From assembly GCF_015689175.1 (NCBI RefSeq), contig NZ_CP065047.1, positions 3,906,001 through 3,970,000 on the forward strand: a stretch of 64,000 nucleotides of DNA, read 5' to 3'. Below, in pieces: positions 22,154 through 29,606 of this stretch (positions are counted from its first letter, which is position 1; every line of letters starts with the position of its first letter). This DNA is from Mycobacterium kubicae. Lineage in GTDB: Bacteria > Actinomycetota > Actinomycetes > Mycobacteriales > Mycobacteriaceae. The position numbers and the translations under genes are program-made. The notes beneath the pieces are model-generated. The model searched no databases. It was not told the DNA's origin and was given only the letters and a program-made list of their open reading frames with translations.

Positions 22154-23179
22154 TCACGCGGGAAGTGGGACCAGCCTTCTGCTCACCAACCTCGGCATCG
22201 CGATCCGCGGGGTGAACCGGGTGAACAGCCGCGCCACGAACGGCGCGGCGAACAGCATTACCACTACCCGGATCACCTGGGACGCCATCACGAACGTCAC
22301 GTTGGAGCCCGACCCCGCGGCGGTGCCGAGGACCGCGTAGATGCCGCCCGGGCTGGTCGACAGGTAGCCGTCGAGCATGCTCAGCCCGGCCACCTTGGCC
22401 AGGACCACACCGAGACCGGCCGCCGCGACATTGATCACCATGATCAGCGCGAACGCGCCGGGCAGGATCCGTCGCACAGCACGCAGCGACTCGCGATCGA
22501 ACGCGAACACCGTCTGCCAGACGATCATCACGATCCCGGCTTGAACCAGCACCATCGGAACCGTCAGGTTGCCCGCCAGCCCGGAGAATTCCAGCATGAT
22601 CGTGATCGCCATCGGGATCAGCAGCCCTGCTCCGGGCAGTCGCACATAGCGGCCGACCGCCGCGCCGACCACCACAATGGCCGCAAGCAGCAGCAGCCCG
22701 GAATAGGAGGTCTGCGAACGGGTTTCGCCGACCTGCGATCCACTGCCCTGGGTGCCGTGGTAGACGACTGTCGCAACCACTGGCATGGCCGCCGTGACCA
22801 GCGCGACGCGCAGGTATTGCACCGCGGCGACGACACGGTCGTCGGCGCCCAGGTCGCGCGCGATGGCGACCAGCCCGGTCGAGCCGCCGGCCACCAGCGC
22901 CAGTCCCCCGGTCAATGGGGTGACGTCGCGGTGCATGCCGAGCAGCGCGCCGCCCGCCACGCTGATGATCAGGGTCCCGACGGCGACCGCGATGACGATC
23001 GGCCAGTTGGAGCCCAGCGCGCCGAAGGAGATCTCGCGCGCCATCAGCCCGGTGTAGACGCCGATCACACCCTGGGCCGCCAGCCCTGCTGTCGACACCG
23101 TCTTCGGCGCAAACCGGGCCAACGACCAGGTGAGAACACCGCAGGCAAGGGCGATGACGATGAGCTGGTACGCGTTCAT
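22154..23179 (-). CDS. AbrB-family polytopic membrane protein (putative exporter, PF05145 type)
   Basis: A 341-residue integral membrane protein with ~10 hydrophobic helices and an internal duplication of the AbrB-duplication fold. Repeated glycine-rich re-entrant blocks are GALLGMHRDVTPLTGGLALVAGGSTGL and, in the second half, MLDGYLSTSPGGIYAVLG. Despite the name it is not a DNA-binding AbrB regulator; the family is listed as putative ammonia monooxygenase/transporter of unknown substrate. The ATG at 23179 follows CAGGGACC. About 100 bases upstream lies a CCAAGG-N5-CCAAGG repeat shared with the hydrolase and dioxygenase promoters, so it is probably in the same regulon. Confidence 0.85.
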   Translation of the reverse strand: MNAYQLIVIALACGVLTWSLARFAPKTVSTAGLAAQGVIGVYTGLMAREISFGALGSNWPIVIAVAVGTLIISVAGGALLGMHRDVTPLTGGLALVAGGSTGLVAIARDLGADDRVVAAVQYLRVALVTAAMPVVATVVYHGTQGSGSQVGETRSQTSYSGLLLLAAIVVVGAAVGRYVRLPGAGLLIPMAITIMLEFSGLAGNLTVPMVLVQAGIVMIVWQTVFAFDRESLRAVRRILPGAFALIMVINVAAAGLGVVLAKVAGLSMLDGYLSTSPGGIYAVLGTAAGSGSNVTFVMASQVIRVVVMLFAAPFVARLFTRFTPRIAMPRLVSRRLVPLPA

Positions 23180-23303: not shown

Positions 23304-25067
23304 TCAGTAGCCCGCGGCCGCCTTGGCCACCACGGCGTCGATTTCTTCGGCAAGCAGGAACCCGTTGGCGGCAAGTGATTCGGCGGCCGCGCGAACCGCA
23401 ACGGCGTAGTCCTCGCGTGTCGACCATCTTTCGGTGACCGACGGCCGCCCCGGCGGGAAAGCCAACTTGCTGCCGATCCGCTCGTAAAGGACGTCGGGCA
23501 ACTCGTCGACGTGCTTCCTGGAGTTCCACCCGGTGTAGGTGGCCAGCGGCGCGGCGATGGCGGGCAGGCGAATGCCGGCCACTTCGTTGCCGTCCGCGTC
23601 GACCGCCGAAACCAGGTCGACGTAGGTTTCGCCGAGTTGGACCGGCCAGCGACCGATGCCGCGGTCGGCGTCGGGGCCAAGGTCGACACGGCGCGCGTAG
23701 CGCAGCGACGCGGGGTCCGGCGCCGCGGCGTGGGCGAAAGCCGACAGCACCTCCTTGCGGGAGACGGCGGTGCCGTTGCCGGTCCGCGGGACCTGGCTGG
23801 CCGGCGGTTCGACGCCGTCGCTGACCCACTGGTCGAGCGCGATCAGCAGGGCCCGGTTCACGGGCGTGACGTCCAGGCGGTGCACCGGGTTGGCGGCCGG
23901 CAGCGCGTCTTTGATGGGGCTGCTGCCGAAGTGGTCGGCGCCCGCGATCAGGTAGGTGCGGACGTCGGGGTCTTCGGGCAGGTCTTGGCCGGTGTCAGGG
24001 TCTACGTGCAGCAGTGCACCGTCGCCATGCCAGTACTCGGACGCGCTGTTGGTGAAGATCGTCTTGGGCACACCGCCGAGTTCGCGCTGCCGGGCCAGCA
24101 GGTCCGCGTGCCCGAACGGGGCGAGATTGCCGAAGCCGTTGGTCTGGGTGACCGACGGCTGTGCGTAGCGGTGGTTGAACTCGCCGGTCGCGGCACCGGC
24201 GAAGTCGCTGAACACCCCGTCAAAAACCGGCATGCCGGACTCGTCGACATTCAAACCCTCGTAGAGGAAGTGGCGCAGCAGGCGACCCGACTGGGAGACG
24301 CCGTAGGCGAAGGTGTGGTCGATGCCGTCAGCCCGCAGATGCGAGACGATGTCGCGGATCGCGAGCAAGCCGCAGCCGACAACGGGTGCCAGCGAGGTCC
24401 GGTACACCAGCTCATAGGTGTGGAAGGGCTGGAACCCGCCGTCGACCGTGACGTGCGTCTGGTCGGTGAACCGCCAGGATTCCCGGGGAATCGTGGTGGG
24501 CTCAGCGTCCGGAGAGGTGCGCACCGTCAGGACGGCCTCGGCGTCGTTGACGTCAACCGTCGGGTAGTCGGTGAACGTGAACAGCGCCTGGGCGCCGGGC
24601 ACGGACTCGATTTCGGGAGCCGAAAAGCTCAGCGCGTGAACCTCATTGGCGCTGTCCGAGCGCCATTCCAGGCGCAGGAAGCCGGCCGGCACGTCGGCCT
24701 GGGGGGCGGTCAACCCCAGGGTCGCCGGTCCGCGTTGCACGTCCCACTGCCAGCCGCACGAGGCGATCGTCCACCCACGCTCGAGCAAGAAGCCGTTCTT
24801 GAACCACGGCGCATAAGTGGGGACGCCACGGTTGGGGACGACGAACAGCAGTTTGCCGTTGCCGCCACCGACCGGGCGAAGCAGACGCAGGTCAGCGTCG
24901 TAGCGAACGAGCCCGTCGGCGTCGCGAGGCGCGTGCTCGAGGTCGACGATGCGGTTGTTCGCGGGACTGTCGGGGTCGACGGCGAAGTTGACGGTCGCCT
25001 CTACCCACTCGTAGCGGCTGTCAGTGTGCGAATACACCTTGTGCGTGTGAACTGACTCGACGGTCAT
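23304..25067 (-). CDS. Large alpha/beta hydrolase domain protein (Abhydrolase_10 family)
   Basis: A 587-residue protein of the alpha/beta hydrolase domain family PF20091, typically 450-650 residues and of unknown substrate. The nucleophile elbow is AYGVSQSGRLL (likely S258), followed by DGVFSDFAGAATGEF. The acid/His end lies around AGADHFGSS. The N-terminal ~220 residues form beta-rich domains (LLFVVPNRGVPTY, ESWRF). There is no signal peptide. Relatives are often found near steroid or xenobiotic degradation genes, which is weak evidence for an ester/lactone substrate. The ATG at 25067 follows AAGGGGGACC. Its promoter has a four-unit array of the 11-bp repeat. Confidence 0.87.
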   Translation of the reverse strand: MTVESVHTHKVYSHTDSRYEWVEATVNFAVDPDSPANNRIVDLEHAPRDADGLVRYDADLRLLRPVGGGNGKLLFVVPNRGVPTYAPWFKNGFLLERGWTIASCGWQWDVQRGPATLGLTAPQADVPAGFLRLEWRSDSANEVHALSFSAPEIESVPGAQALFTFTDYPTVDVNDAEAVLTVRTSPDAEPTTIPRESWRFTDQTHVTVDGGFQPFHTYELVYRTSLAPVVGCGLLAIRDIVSHLRADGIDHTFAYGVSQSGRLLRHFLYEGLNVDESGMPVFDGVFSDFAGAATGEFNHRYAQPSVTQTNGFGNLAPFGHADLLARQRELGGVPKTIFTNSASEYWHGDGALLHVDPDTGQDLPEDPDVRTYLIAGADHFGSSPIKDALPAANPVHRLDVTPVNRALLIALDQWVSDGVEPPASQVPRTGNGTAVSRKEVLSAFAHAAAPDPASLRYARRVDLGPDADRGIGRWPVQLGETYVDLVSAVDADGNEVAGIRLPAIAAPLATYTGWNSRKHVDELPDVLYERIGSKLAFPPGRPSVTERWSTREDYAVAVRAAAESLAANGFLLAEEIDAVVAKAAAGY

Positions 25068-25213: not shown

Positions 25214-28200
25214 TCAGCCGTGTTGCTGACGCAATGCGTTGACGCAAATCGCGTGTGCGAGGTTGTTTCGCGATGGCGCGCCGTAAACGCGGGCCGCCGG
25301 CACCCGCCGCGGTGACTGGTACCGCACATCGGCTCGTGGGCTGGAGTGCGGCTCGTCGCCGACGGACAGGTGTAGCCGCAGGATCCGACCGCCGAGTTGG
25401 ACGAAGGCGCCGGGCCGCCATGTCACAGGCTCCCAGGGGGCGAGTCTGGTCCAGCCCTGCTGCGCGGTTTCGCGCAGGAAGACGCCGTTGGTGGAATTGC
25501 GGTCGACGACCACGACCGCTCCGTCGACGATCCGGACTTCTACGTGGGCGCGGGACATTTCGCCCGTGTGGTCATCGATGCGGATCGGGCGAAGTCCGCG
25601 TTTGGCGGCATCCGATCCGTGCGGATCACGGCCGATCACGCAGTCTCGGTCGAGTTCGAATCGAGAACTGTCGTCTAGCACAACCCATCGCTTGGGCAGT
25701 GACTTCTCGACCGTCTTTGCGGTGGAGAAGTTGTCGTCACCCGCAGGCGACACCGGCGCGACGGGAACGGCCGGCGCCTGCCGCGGTGCCGACGTGGCCT
25801 GCGTCGACCACACGACGGCGCCGTGCCCCGGCACGGTTCCTTCGGCGAGCTTGTACACGCCGCTCTCAACAGCCGGGGGCTGCGCCCGCTGACCCACTTC
25901 GTCGACGGTGATGACCGCCGCCACCGCGGGTACGGGCACGGATCGGTGCAACAGGCGGCCGCGGCCGTGCAACACCGTTTGCCGGACGCCGTCGTCGAAC
26001 GCGACGGTGACACTGCCGCACAGCAAGACCTCGAGACCGGCCGCGGTGGGGATGATGATGCCGACGTCGACCAGGGTGCGCGTCCAGGTTGTTTCCCGAG
26101 CGACTTGCAAGAATGCGCTGACCATTTGCTGGGCGTCGGTGCGCCGCACCATTTCGGTCAGCGCCGCCATCTGCTGTGCGGCGACGGATTGGGCGGTCAG
26201 CGGCGAACGCTCGCGGTGCGCGACGACGATGACCGCACCGTTGACGTTGGACACCAGGTGCTGACCGGGGATGACCTCGATCTCGCGCGGAGGCAGGACC
26301 GGCACCGGACCGCTGGGCAGCGGTTCCTCGACTGGGGCCGGCACCTCGGCCTCGCGGGCCGCCTCCGCCTGGGCCTCGGGTGCTTCGCTGATGCCGATGC
26401 GCGAGTGCAACCAGCGCAGTGGGCGCGGGGCCCACCAGTTGAGGTCGCCGGCCAGGCGCAGAAACGCCGGTACCACGACGCCGCGAATGATCGTCGCGTC
26501 GATGACGACGGCCAGCGCCGTCCCGATGCCGAACATCTTCATGAACGACAGGCCGTTGGCGAAGGAGATGAACGTGATGGTCAACAGCAGCGCGGCGCTG
26601 GTGACGATCCGCCCGACCCGGCCCAACCCGATGACGGTCGACGCGGTGTTCGACAAACCCGAGTCGCGGGCTTCCTTGATCCGGCTGAGCAGGAATATCT
26701 CGTAGTCCACCGACAGGCTGAATGCGATGGCGCAGAGCAGCACGACCATGGACAGGTTCAGCGGCGCAGGAGTGATTCCCAGGACCGAGGCCAGATGCCC
26801 TTCCTGGAAGATCCAGACCATGATGCCCAGAACCGCGCTCAGGACAAGGAGATTCAGCAGCAGCGCCTTCACCGGTACCACGACGCTGCCGGTGAACAGG
26901 AACAGCAAAATGAACGTGGAAACCGCGATCAGGCCGATCGCCAACGGCAGCTTCTCGGCGATCGCGGCGCGACTGTCCAGCAGCGTGGCGGTCGGTCCGC
27001 CGACTTCGATCTGGTGGTTGGTGATCTTCGCCCGGATGTCACGCACCAGGTGTTGGGCAGTGTCCGAGTCCGCCTGAACCGACAGGTAGACGACCGCATA
27101 GCTGGCCCCCGACACTGCCGGCGGCTGTCCTTCCGCCTGGCCATGCTGGTAGCGGCCGACGGGGCCGGTGACCAGCACGACGCCGTCCATGCGCGACACC
27201 TCCGGCGCCAGGGTCTGCAGCGCGCCGGCGTCGTTGCGGGTGACCAGCGTGATGGCTTGGGAGGGGTCCAGCGTGAAGTCCCGTTGCAGCGATTCGGCCA
27301 CCAGACGCGCACTGGAGTCCGTCGGCAGCGCGCGCTCGTCGGGCGTGGCGAATTCGACTTTGAGGAACGGAATCCCGAGCCCCAACAGCATCGCCACCAC
27401 CGGCAGCGCGAACAGCGTGGGACGACGTGTGACCACCTCGGCGAAACGTCGCCAGAACATGGAATCGGCTGAGGGCGCGACCTTTCGGCGGATGATGGAC
27501 AGGGAGTCGACGCGCTTGCCGAGCAGAGCCAGCAGTGCGGGCAGGACGACGATCGCGCTGAACGCCGACAGCAGGACGGTGGCGGTCGCGGCCAGCCCGA
27601 CCGACCGCAGGAAGTAGGTGGGGAACACCAGGAGGCTGGTCATCGCGAGCGTGACAGTCGCCGCGCTGAACAGAATGGTGCGGCCGGCGGTGATGACGGT
27701 GGCGACGATGGCCTGCTGGTGATCTCTGCCGTTGGTCAACTCCTCGCGGAATCGCGACACCATCAGCAGGCCGAAGTCGATGGACAAGCCGAGACCGAAC
27801 GCGGTCGTCACCGTCAGGGCGTGCACAGAGACGTCGGTGATGGTCGTCATGAGCAGCAACACCGACAGGGTGGAGACGATCGAGACGACGCCCACCACCA
27901 CCGGTAGCACCGCGGCGACGAGGCCTCCGAAGACGATGACCAGGACGGCAAGGGAGATGGGCACCGCGATGCTCTCGCTGGTCTTGAGGTCCTGTTTGAC
28001 CTTGTCCCGGATCTCCTGCTGAACGCCGAGGGCGCCGCCGGCGCGCACGGTGACATTGGTGTCGTGCGGCAGGCTGGCGATGATCCGCTTGGCCGTGTCT
28101 GCGGCCTCGTCCGCGGTTCCGCCGACGTGCACGAGCACCAGGCCCGAGCGGCCGTCCTTGCTGCGTAAGTCCCCGGCGCCCTCGTCGCCGAAGGTCCTGG

Positions 28201-28507
28201 TGACCTTGGCTTTCGGTTCGGCCGCGATGGCCCGCAGTACCTGGTCCCGGACCGCTGCGGCCTCGTTGCTGTCGACGGTGCCCTCGCGGGGGAGCAACTG
28301 AATGACCAAGTTGGAGGTCGTGCCGAAATGCTGGTCCAGGAATTCGTCGGCCTGCGACGATTCCGACTTCGGATCGGTGTTGCCGCCCGTCCCGAGCTTG
28401 TCGGACACGGAGCCGCCGAGCACGACGCTGATGCCGAGCAGGACCAGAACCGCCGCCAGCACCAACTTGGGGCGACGCACGGAGTTTTCGGCCAAACGCC
28501 TCAACAT
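25214..28507 (-). CDS. MMPL/RND-family transporter fused to a C-terminal FHA domain
   Basis: A 1097-residue protein. Residues 1-~725 are an MMPL transporter with 12 predicted helices in two halves (start RRPKLVLAAVLVLLGISVV; SSD-like blocks TTAFGLGLSIDFGLLMVSRFREEL and AFSLSVDYEIFLLSRI) and two periplasmic loops. Residues ~755-930 are a cytosolic linker domain. Residues ~939-1049 are a complete FHA phosphothreonine-binding domain: VIGRDPHG (G959-R960), MSRAH (S985, R986, H988) and DRNSTNG (N1004, N1007). MMPL proteins export envelope lipids in mycobacteria; the FHA domain suggests docking of a Ser/Thr-kinase-phosphorylated partner. The gene stands between hydrolase and dioxygenase genes on the same strand. 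Confidence 0.92.
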   Translation of the reverse strand: MLRRLAENSVRRPKLVLAAVLVLLGISVVLGGSVSDKLGTGGNTDPKSESSQADEFLDQHFGTTSNLVIQLLPREGTVDSNEAAAVRDQVLRAIAAEPKAKVTRTFGDEGAGDLRSKDGRSGLVLVHVGGTADEAADTAKRIIASLPHDTNVTVRAGGALGVQQEIRDKVKQDLKTSESIAVPISLAVLVIVFGGLVAAVLPVVVGVVSIVSTLSVLLLMTTITDVSVHALTVTTAFGLGLSIDFGLLMVSRFREELTNGRDHQQAIVATVITAGRTILFSAATVTLAMTSLLVFPTYFLRSVGLAATATVLLSAFSAIVVLPALLALLGKRVDSLSIIRRKVAPSADSMFWRRFAEVVTRRPTLFALPVVAMLLGLGIPFLKVEFATPDERALPTDSSARLVAESLQRDFTLDPSQAITLVTRNDAGALQTLAPEVSRMDGVVLVTGPVGRYQHGQAEGQPPAVSGASYAVVYLSVQADSDTAQHLVRDIRAKITNHQIEVGGPTATLLDSRAAIAEKLPLAIGLIAVSTFILLFLFTGSVVVPVKALLLNLLVLSAVLGIMVWIFQEGHLASVLGITPAPLNLSMVVLLCAIAFSLSVDYEIFLLSRIKEARDSGLSNTASTVIGLGRVGRIVTSAALLLTITFISFANGLSFMKMFGIGTALAVVIDATIIRGVVVPAFLRLAGDLNWWAPRPLRWLHSRIGISEAPEAQAEAAREAEVPAPVEEPLPSGPVPVLPPREIEVIPGQHLVSNVNGAVIVVAHRERSPLTAQSVAAQQMAALTEMVRRTDAQQMVSAFLQVARETTWTRTLVDVGIIIPTAAGLEVLLCGSVTVAFDDGVRQTVLHGRGRLLHRSVPVPAVAAVITVDEVGQRAQPPAVESGVYKLAEGTVPGHGAVVWSTQATSAPRQAPAVPVAPVSPAGDDNFSTAKTVEKSLPKRWVVLDDSSRFELDRDCVIGRDPHGSDAAKRGLRPIRIDDHTGEMSRAHVEVRIVDGAVVVVDRNSTNGVFLRETAQQGWTRLAPWEPVTWRPGAFVQLGGRILRLHLSVGDEPHSSPRADVRYQSPRRVPAARVYGAPSRNNLAHAICVNALRQQHG

Positions 28508-28613: not shown

Positions 28614-29606
28614 TCAGTTCAGCGGCTCACCGGCCAGCCACAGGCGTACCAGGCAGCGCCGCTGCGCCACCTCGGTGGCGTCGACGAACCCACGCCGGTT
28701 GTGCAGCGTCACGTGGTTGTCGGCGAACAAGACGTCACCGGGCGTCAGCGTGAACTCGACGAAGTTGGCCGGGTCGTTGAGGGCACGGTCGAACGCGTCG
28801 AGTGCCTGTCGCTGCCGGTCGGTGAGCGGTTTGCCGCCGCGGTAGTGGCCCAGTTCGATGTGCAGGCGGTTGTAGCGGATCTTCACGCCCTCGTTGGTGT
28901 CGGTGAAGATCGAGCCGACGGTGATGGGGTCCTCGCCCAGTTCGGTCTCGTGCGAGCGGTCGAAGCAGAACTCGCCGTAGAGCTCGTCGACCAAATCGGG
29001 GTGTGCCTGCAGCAGCGTGTTGTACGCGGTGTGGCCGCTGATCATCACCGATTCCCCGCCGGATACCGACTTGCGCAGGCACAGCAGGCCCAGGACGTCG
29101 GGAAGGCTGCCGGCGTAGGCGCACGCCGAGTCGGTGTGAAAGATCAGTTCGGAGTTGGTCTTCGAGCCGCGGGCCTCCGCGACCGACTGGCCGGTGTCCT
29201 GGACGAGGTAGACGCGATCGCCCTGCCGGTTCTGCGGCTGCGGGGCACCGAGGTATGTGCCCAGGCCCCAGTACAGCATCGACGCTTCCTCGTCGGTCCA
29301 GTCCTGCAAGGGCAGGCCGCGCAGCACGCAGAAGCCGGGACCCAGGCCCAGGCAGTGGCGGATGCCGCGGGCGATCTCGGTGAGTGCGGGCTCTTGGAAG
29401 TCGGAGGCCTCGATGGTGTCGAGCCGCCGGCCGCGGCGGCGCAGCCGGTCGCGGATCCGCAGGCAAGCGGCGGCCTGTTGCGGCTCTACCGCGATCATGT
29501 AGTCGTATTCGCCCAGGCTGGCGCTGTCCCAGACAGTGGGTCCGGCCATTGACTGCCGCTGGGCAGCCGGCATCGTGTGCGTCGCTTTCTTGACCGAAGT
29601 GGACAT
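28614..29606 (-). CDS. TauD/TfdA-family Fe(II)/2-oxoglutarate dioxygenase
   Basis: A 330-residue non-haem iron oxygenase. The facial triad is HTD (H157, D159) and a distal His in TLHNRRGF (H302). A downstream Arg in RRCLVRLWL can hold 2-oxoglutarate. Further landmarks are GFCVLRGLPL near 91-100 and FADNHVTLHN. Relatives hydroxylate taurine, gamma-butyrobetaine or other small acids, and this one resembles the broad TauD superfamily rather than TauD itself. The ATG at 29606 follows GAGGGGATG. An 11-bp direct repeat lies 55-70 bases upstream, and the EBP-like gene diverges from the same region. The substrate is unknown. Confidence 0.9.
   Translation of the reverse strand: MSTSVKKATHTMPAAQRQSMAGPTVWDSASLGEYDYMIAVEPQQAAACLRIRDRLRRRGRRLDTIEASDFQEPALTEIARGIRHCLGLGPGFCVLRGLPLQDWTDEEASMLYWGLGTYLGAPQPQNRQGDRVYLVQDTGQSVAEARGSKTNSELIFHTDSACAYAGSLPDVLGLLCLRKSVSGGESVMISGHTAYNTLLQAHPDLVDELYGEFCFDRSHETELGEDPITVGSIFTDTNEGVKIRYNRLHIELGHYRGGKPLTDRQRQALDAFDRALNDPANFVEFTLTPGDVLFADNHVTLHNRRGFVDATEVAQRRCLVRLWLAGEPLN

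What the first reader, a model, noticed from the sequence alone, without database searches (positions are those of the whole stretch)
25214..28507. MMPL transporter with a C-terminal FHA phosphothreonine-binding domain
A complete FHA domain (GR, SRxH, NxTNG all intact) is fused in one frame to a full-length MMPL/RND transporter through a ~180-residue cytosolic linker. Transporter and phospho-reader are usually separate proteins. The fusion implies that envelope lipid export here is gated by, or scaffolds, a Ser/Thr-kinase-phosphorylated partner. The linker (GAVIVVAHRE.., LEVLLCGSVTVAFDDG..) resembles the domain preceding FHA in some actinobacterial FHA proteins and may be a degenerate phosphatase-like module.
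Basis: partly seen in the sequence, partly recalled or inferred. Interest (0 to 1): 0.75.

Follow-up and report, generated by a model that had tools for sequence, protein, structure and literature searches.

The report
Lipid-exporter-type transporter fused to phosphothreonine reader
Some mycobacteria carry a membrane exporter of the type that builds their waxy coat, joined inside the cell to a dead-phosphatase-like domain and a phosphothreonine-reading domain, which suggests that kinase signalling steers the exporter, although I found no test of this.

The parts
25214..28507 (-). complete gene: MMPL - pseudo-PP2C - spacer - FHA, 1097 aa
   Evidence: ORF; Pfam; same one-frame layout in 33 of 33 fetched loci with linker and FHA, 24 distinct genomes
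26303..28507 (-). MMPL/RND transporter domain, residues 1-735
   Evidence: PF03176 E 2.2e-72, two stretches; best PDB sequence match MmpL3 E 2.4e-97; hydropathy
25799..26284 (-). cytosolic PP2C-fold domain, predicted inactive (pseudophosphatase), about residues 742-903
25700..25798 (-). variable spacer, residues 904-936
   Evidence: pLDDT under 50 for most of it; dN/dS 0.33-1.9 over 3-31 codons
25358..25696 (-). FHA domain, residues 938-1050
25628..25633 (-). FHA motif GR (G959 R960)
   Evidence: nearly invariant
25544..25555 (-). FHA motif SRAH (985-988)
   Evidence: nearly invariant
25484..25495 (-). FHA motif STNG (1005-1008)
   Evidence: nearly invariant
25214..25357 (-). unconserved C-terminal tail and stop
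28614..29606 (-). upstream neighbour, TauD/TfdA dioxygenase, 106 bp gap, possible operon partner
   Evidence: PF02668 E 2.5e-36; a homologue near the fusion in 15 of 26 distinct loci
23304..25067 (-). downstream neighbour, Abhydrolase_10 protein, 146 bp gap
   Evidence: PF20091 E 2.2e-36; a homologue near the fusion in 11 of 26 loci, in varying orientation
22154..23179 (-). AbrB-family (PF05145) protein
   Evidence: a homologue near the fusion in 14 of 26 loci

Best explanation
The gene makes an inner-membrane MMPL (RND-superfamily) exporter whose cytosolic C-terminus is a two-domain signalling adaptor: a PP2C-fold domain that has probably lost its metal site (a pseudophosphatase) and an FHA domain that keeps the phosphothreonine pocket. 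Shown here: architecture, conservation, purifying selection on all three folded parts, PP2C fold of the predicted model, intact FHA pocket motifs. Inferred: a Ser/Thr kinase encoded elsewhere phosphorylates a threonine on another protein; the FHA docks that pThr in trans; the docking, sterically or through the pseudo-PP2C, places the pump where it is needed or changes its activity. A trans ligand is preferred because the only T[VQI]x[LIVMF] site in the protein's own cytosolic part lies in a linker strand; other FHA ligand types, such as TxxD, were not scanned. Cargo is unknown; a lipid or lipid-like molecule is likely from family membership alone.
Against: No binding, phosphorylation or transport data for this protein. 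No kinase match lies in the window, and a kinase-motif scan found none in 28 of 28 MMPL-fusion loci, so the kinase cannot be named. FHA, linker or both are missing in many close MMPL relatives (21 FHA only, 10 linker only, 19 neither, of 133), so the module is not needed for every pump of this clade. In the 8 repeat-tailed relatives whose FHA start was printed, the key Arg is lost (GR to GC or GS).
Confidence: 0.55

Rival explanations
1. Kinase-docking model: the FHA binds an autophosphorylated Ser/Thr kinase and brings it to the transporter, which is the real substrate, as proposed for PknF and Rv1747.
For: [quoted passage not shown] Rv1747/PknF precedent (listing, passages).
Against: A kinase-motif scan found no kinase near the fusion in 28 of 28 loci.
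Confidence: 0.2
2. Cis switch as in GarA/OdhI: a phosphothreonine of the same chain folds onto its own FHA.
For: Several members carry a TVxI/TVxL-type motif shortly before the FHA, and MFS-FHA relatives carry TVQI, TVHM, TVRI or TVRM.
Against: The window protein has TVEK there, and its only T[VQI]x[LIVMF] is in the folded linker; the spacer is not conserved.
Confidence: 0.12
3. The FHA and the pseudo-PP2C are passengers without present function.
For: FHA and linker are missing in many close MMPL relatives; L080 and L081 have no significant FHA match.
Against: Purifying selection and intact pocket over the main clade.
Confidence: 0.1
4. Assembly or annotation artefact joining two genes.
For: None found.
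Against: 33 of 33 fetched loci with linker and FHA, 24 distinct genomes, have the same single frame.
Confidence: 0.01

Closest known systems
Rv1747-type FHA-ABC exporter (PknF partner)
   Same: Transporter and FHA in one chain in the same genus; regulated through pThr binding and PknF according to PMC5549992 (passages). The own genome has five ORFs with two FHA matches each (not identified further).
   Different: ABC transporter with two FHA domains and a linked kinase gene (pknF); here an RND/MMPL pump, one C-terminal FHA, a pseudo-PP2C before it, no linked kinase found.
MmpL3 (trehalose monomycolate exporter) and other MMPLs
   Same: Same transporter superfamily; MmpL3 is the best PDB sequence match; MmpL3 Thr893 and Thr910 are listed as phosphorylated (PMC4389566, passages).
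   Different: 405.6 bits against a cut-off of 1400 for the MmpL3 model; the genome has its own MmpL3 at 1656 bits, 30% identical over the MMPL part.
MFS-FHA fusions in the same genus (L090-L093, L095-L099)
   Same: FHA 55-62% identical to this one, also C-terminal on a transporter.
   Different: MFS permease (Pfam on L091; the other eight 89-99% identical over the permease part); no linker match.
Free-standing pseudo-PP2C + FHA proteins of the order
   Same: Homologous linker (hhalign E 1.8e-18; both sides cut from one multiple alignment, so the value may be flattered) followed by FHA.
   Different: Not MMPL-fused; some with a Cys-rich, zinc-ribbon-like stretch; 13 of 19 loci with a kinase motif nearby.
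PstP and other PP2C/PPM phosphatases
   Same: Fold of the linker model.
   Different: No sequence-profile similarity found; two metal-binding Asp positions not kept (by eye); about 165 against about 235 residues.
GarA/OdhI
   Same: Solved actinobacterial FHA domains with the highest identity in the structural rows, 30-33%.
   Different: Small soluble regulators of central metabolism; no transporter part.

Membership tests
MMPL / RND transporter | Two MMPL repeats with membrane helices | tested here: met
   PF03176 E 2.2e-72, two stretches; hydropathy
MMPL / RND transporter | Proton-driven export of lipid-like cargo | not testable with these tools
   no biochemical data
MmpL3 (NF052608) | Score over the equivalog cut-off | tested here: not met
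   405.6 against 1400 bits; own MmpL3 elsewhere 1656 bits
FHA domain (PF00498) | Score over gathering threshold | tested here: met
   23.6 against 20.7 bits
FHA domain (PF00498) | GR, SxxH, NG motifs of the pThr pocket | tested here: met
   G959 R960, S985 H988, N1007 G1008
FHA domain (PF00498) | Binds phosphothreonine | not testable with these tools
   needs a binding assay
PP2C/PPM phosphatase | PP2C fold | tested here: met
PP2C/PPM phosphatase | Profile similarity to PP2C sequences | tested here: not met
   hhalign probability 6% or less against 25 mycobacterial PP2Cs
PP2C/PPM phosphatase | Metal-binding Asp of the ADG and DN motifs | tested here: not met
   in the window protein ADG reads AHR and DN reads HG; mapping by eye, guided by strands; four MMPL-type relatives read DG at the second place; the third Asp (SDG) reads VDE and may be kept
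Rv1747-type FHA exporter | ABC ATPase with FHA domains | tested here: not met
   no ABC_tran match
Rv1747-type FHA exporter | Linked Ser/Thr kinase gene | tested here: not met
   no kinase match in the window; no kinase motif in 28 of 28 fusion loci
GarA/OdhI | Short soluble protein with N-terminal phospho-acceptor motif and FHA | tested here: not met
   OdhI model 14.9 bits against 200; architecture differs

The most novel reading that the evidence does not exclude
The pseudo-PP2C+FHA pair is a portable cytosolic adaptor with which Mycobacteriales wire unrelated exporter classes to Ser/Thr kinases: fused to MMPL pumps here, free-standing near FHA-ABC exporters, and FHA alone on MFS permeases. 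On MMPL pumps the FHA would read phosphorylated tails of other exporters, for instance the MmpL3 tail (SDAATQQLN) or the nearest MMPL paralogue's tail (DEAETVRLE), so that kinases assemble mixed exporter complexes. The pseudo-PP2C would shield or time that bond.
Probability: 0.15. Interest if true: 0.8.

Novelty: new variant of a known kind. Interest (0 to 1): 0.52.

Why it matters
MMPL pumps build the mycobacterial envelope, and how Ser/Thr kinases control export is poorly understood. A pump with a built-in phosphothreonine reader and a pseudophosphatase-like domain gives a single gene in which phospho-dependent control of an RND pump can be tested directly, by pocket mutation and pull-down. 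It also points to a regulatory cassette shared across three exporter classes.

Tried and rejected
Assembly fusion: rejected. MmpL3 orthologue: rejected. The neighbouring 1015-aa MMPL, which I take to be MmpL11 from recall of gene order, is about 31% identical over 565 positions. Cis GarA-like switch: not supported for this protein. Sequence-only proof that the linker is PP2C: failed (hhalign; 25 of 30 fetched loci used, 5 dropped by a motif filter). The weak beta-lactamase rows (E 0.02 and above) overlap the linker and were taken as chance.

Thr-rich repeat tails as partner: a search for such a tail matched 1 of 297 genus genomes, not the window's own, so I did not pursue it. P0061 and P0149 report equal contig lengths and may be on one contig; not checked. 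L151, a second genome of the second genus, has only the later part of the MMPL in frame with linker and FHA (755 aa ORF); what lies upstream was not examined, so I do not count it. L076's 1516-aa frame was not matched by the Pfam FHA model at E 0.001 although BLAST shows the domain.

Limits. The own-genome tail survey scanned 35 loci but its filter caught only 4 MMPL tails, so the TxxL observation rests on 4. MFS-FHA and MMPL-FHA did not occur in the same genome; chance overlap would be under one, so no inference. The tree (129 tips) puts the complete form at the base and losses within, but that branch has support 0.594 only, and some short forms look frameshifted. Counts are lower bounds (8000 best candidates scored; one search listed 120 of 2660), and so are, which scored 7 to 9 of the first-look candidates per genome. 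The lk and fh profiles were built from this family and its free relatives. Plain Foldseek never ran, so there are no Foldseek E-values or TM-scores. The full-length structure was not predicted. That the rows are all PP2C-fold rests on titles for most and on recall for some (for example 3zt9, 4jnd, 4iik, TAB1, HAB1 and ABI1 complexes).

Full report
WHAT IS THERE. Window 25214-28507 (-) is a single ORF of 1097 aa. Pfam finds MMPL (E 2.2e-72, two stretches) and FHA (E 7.1e-5, 23.6 bits, cut-off 20.7) and nothing significant between them. The pocket motifs GR, SRAH and STNG are present and nearly invariant (90% or more) among 23 aligned relatives, of which two lack the FHA. The genome has 6.02 Mb in 3 contigs, 17 FHA matches, 49 MMPL half-matches and 27 kinase matches, 26 of them over the cut-off. 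No kinase match falls in the window.

NOT AN ARTEFACT. A search with residues 740-1060 gave 82 proteins; 73 have linker and FHA by family profiles built here, 70 of them at least 950 aa long. The FHA is divergent: the precomputed Pfam list shows PF00498 for 35 of the 82 only. A named-genome scan gave 14 loci, for example M. asiaticum, M. gordonae, M. intermedium, M. barrassiae and Mycolicibacterium tusciae. In the genus, 297 genomes were searched and 59 had some match; 18 had the whole module in one hit and 2 in two hits of one ORF, giving 20 with the fusion, own genome included. Two further genomes have MMPL plus linker without FHA (L080, L081). In the family search (251 genomes; 70 matched at E 1e-8) a second genus has the module: L150 is a complete MMPL-linker-FHA protein of 1044 aa, Pfam-checked; L151 shows only the later part of the MMPL in frame. 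In the order search (249 genomes; 82 matched) no single-hit full-module match in an MMPL-sized frame lay outside the genus. So the architecture is patchy, about 7% of the genus genomes sampled, and seen only in this family as far as tested.

SELECTION. Pairwise Nei-Gojobori estimates of the window gene against 12 relatives give dN/dS of 0.11-0.36 (MMPL), 0.13-0.49 (linker) and 0.13-0.49 (FHA), against 0.33-1.9 for the spacer (3-31 codons) and 0.5 and above for the tail where it could be computed (6-34 codons). So linker and FHA are constrained domains separated by a free tether.

THE MODULE ELSEWHERE. The linker is homologous to the domain before FHA in free proteins (hhalign E 1.8e-18, both sides from one alignment; alignments). 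In one search, 11 of 14 fetched loci have linker and FHA in an ORF that is not MMPL-fused by what I saw; some of these ORFs are over-extended at the start, and most were not Pfam-tested. With L082-L089 that makes 19 free-module loci. A kinase motif lies in 13 of the 19 (L082-L089, L152, L156, L159, L160, L162), against 0 of 28 MMPL-type loci; six kinases were confirmed by Pfam. Rv1747-like ORFs lie in 6 of the 19 (L152, L154, L155, L157, L158, L162; Pfam on L152 and L158). A similar FHA (55-62% identity) sits on an MFS permease in 9 loci (Pfam on one).

EVOLUTION. Among 133 proteins whose MMPL end was covered: 83 linker+FHA, 21 FHA only, 10 linker only, 19 neither; some short forms look frameshifted or truncated and were left as they are. 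A 129-tip FastTree suggests that the complete form is old and parts were lost several times, with weak support at the base. Relatives without FHA often end in tandem Thr-rich repeats (DEETQRL, EPDTIRHP); in the 8 repeat-bearing members whose FHA start was printed, the GR motif has become GC or GS. So repeats and a working pocket do not go together, which speaks against a simple cis bond.

NEIGHBOURHOOD. Among 26 distinct loci (24 complete, 2 without FHA) a TauD/TfdA homologue lies near the fusion in 15, AbrB-family in 14, Abhydrolase_10 in 11 (contig ends make these lower bounds). In 7 of 26 a sigma-70 factor gene lies upstream on the same strand, at a median of 56 bp (Pfam on one). Neighbours change, so they do not name a cargo.

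MECHANISM. Best supported: an FHA-steered MMPL exporter that reads a pThr in trans. The only T[VQI]x[LIVMF] site in its own cytosolic part lies in a linker strand. Candidate ligands in the same genome are the MmpL3 tail and the tail of a close MMPL paralogue (39% identical). MmpL3 Thr893 and Thr910 are listed as phosphorylated in M. bovis BCG and M. tuberculosis (PMC4389566, passages seen). Whether FHA binding gates, localises or clusters the pump is not decided.

PRINT. The listings showed no paper on an MMPL-FHA fusion or on this pseudo-PP2C+FHA pair. I saw listings and abstract starts, and passages of PMC4389566, PMC5549992 and PMC4238996. Three of the listings were partial, and most subscription papers are not held. 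PMC5549992 calls Rv1747 the sole FHA-bearing ABC transporter and one of six FHA proteins of M. tuberculosis, which is the nearest precedent.

VERDICT. Real, conserved and, as far as I could search, uncharacterised; a new variant of FHA-bearing exporters rather than a new kind.

Noticed in passing
G000:C1:5071084-5073738 and C1:5175776-5178430 (outside the window): Two MMPL genes with identical scores 104.7 kb apart, followed at the first copy by MMPL fragments, one with an in-frame stop: looks like a recent duplication with decay.
   Followed up: no
L052:3697-4623: In 7 of 26 MMPL loci a sigma-70-type factor gene lies a median of 56 bp upstream on the same strand (Pfam on this one).
   Followed up: partly
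L084:7417-10518: A 1034-aa ORF with FHA, 2Fe-2S and NAD(P)H oxidoreductase domains beside a free pseudo-PP2C+FHA gene and a kinase.
   Followed up: partly
L090-L093, L095-L099: MFS permease with a C-terminal FHA similar to the one in the window, 9 loci of the genus.
   Followed up: partly
P0143, P0148, P0149, P0151, P0153-P0156, P0160, P0163, P0164, P0169, P0170, P0172, P0174, P0175 (proteins): MMPL relatives without FHA that end in tandem Thr-rich repeats (DEETQRL / EPDTIRHP) resembling kinase sites; P0154 looks frameshifted at its end.
   Followed up: partly
L161:4628-5992: FHA followed by a PP2C domain in one 455-aa ORF of the genus, the reverse order of the window protein.
   Followed up: no
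L082, L152, L153, L154, L155, L156, L162: Free linker-FHA proteins with a Cys-rich, zinc-ribbon-like stretch between the two domains (sequences).
   Followed up: no
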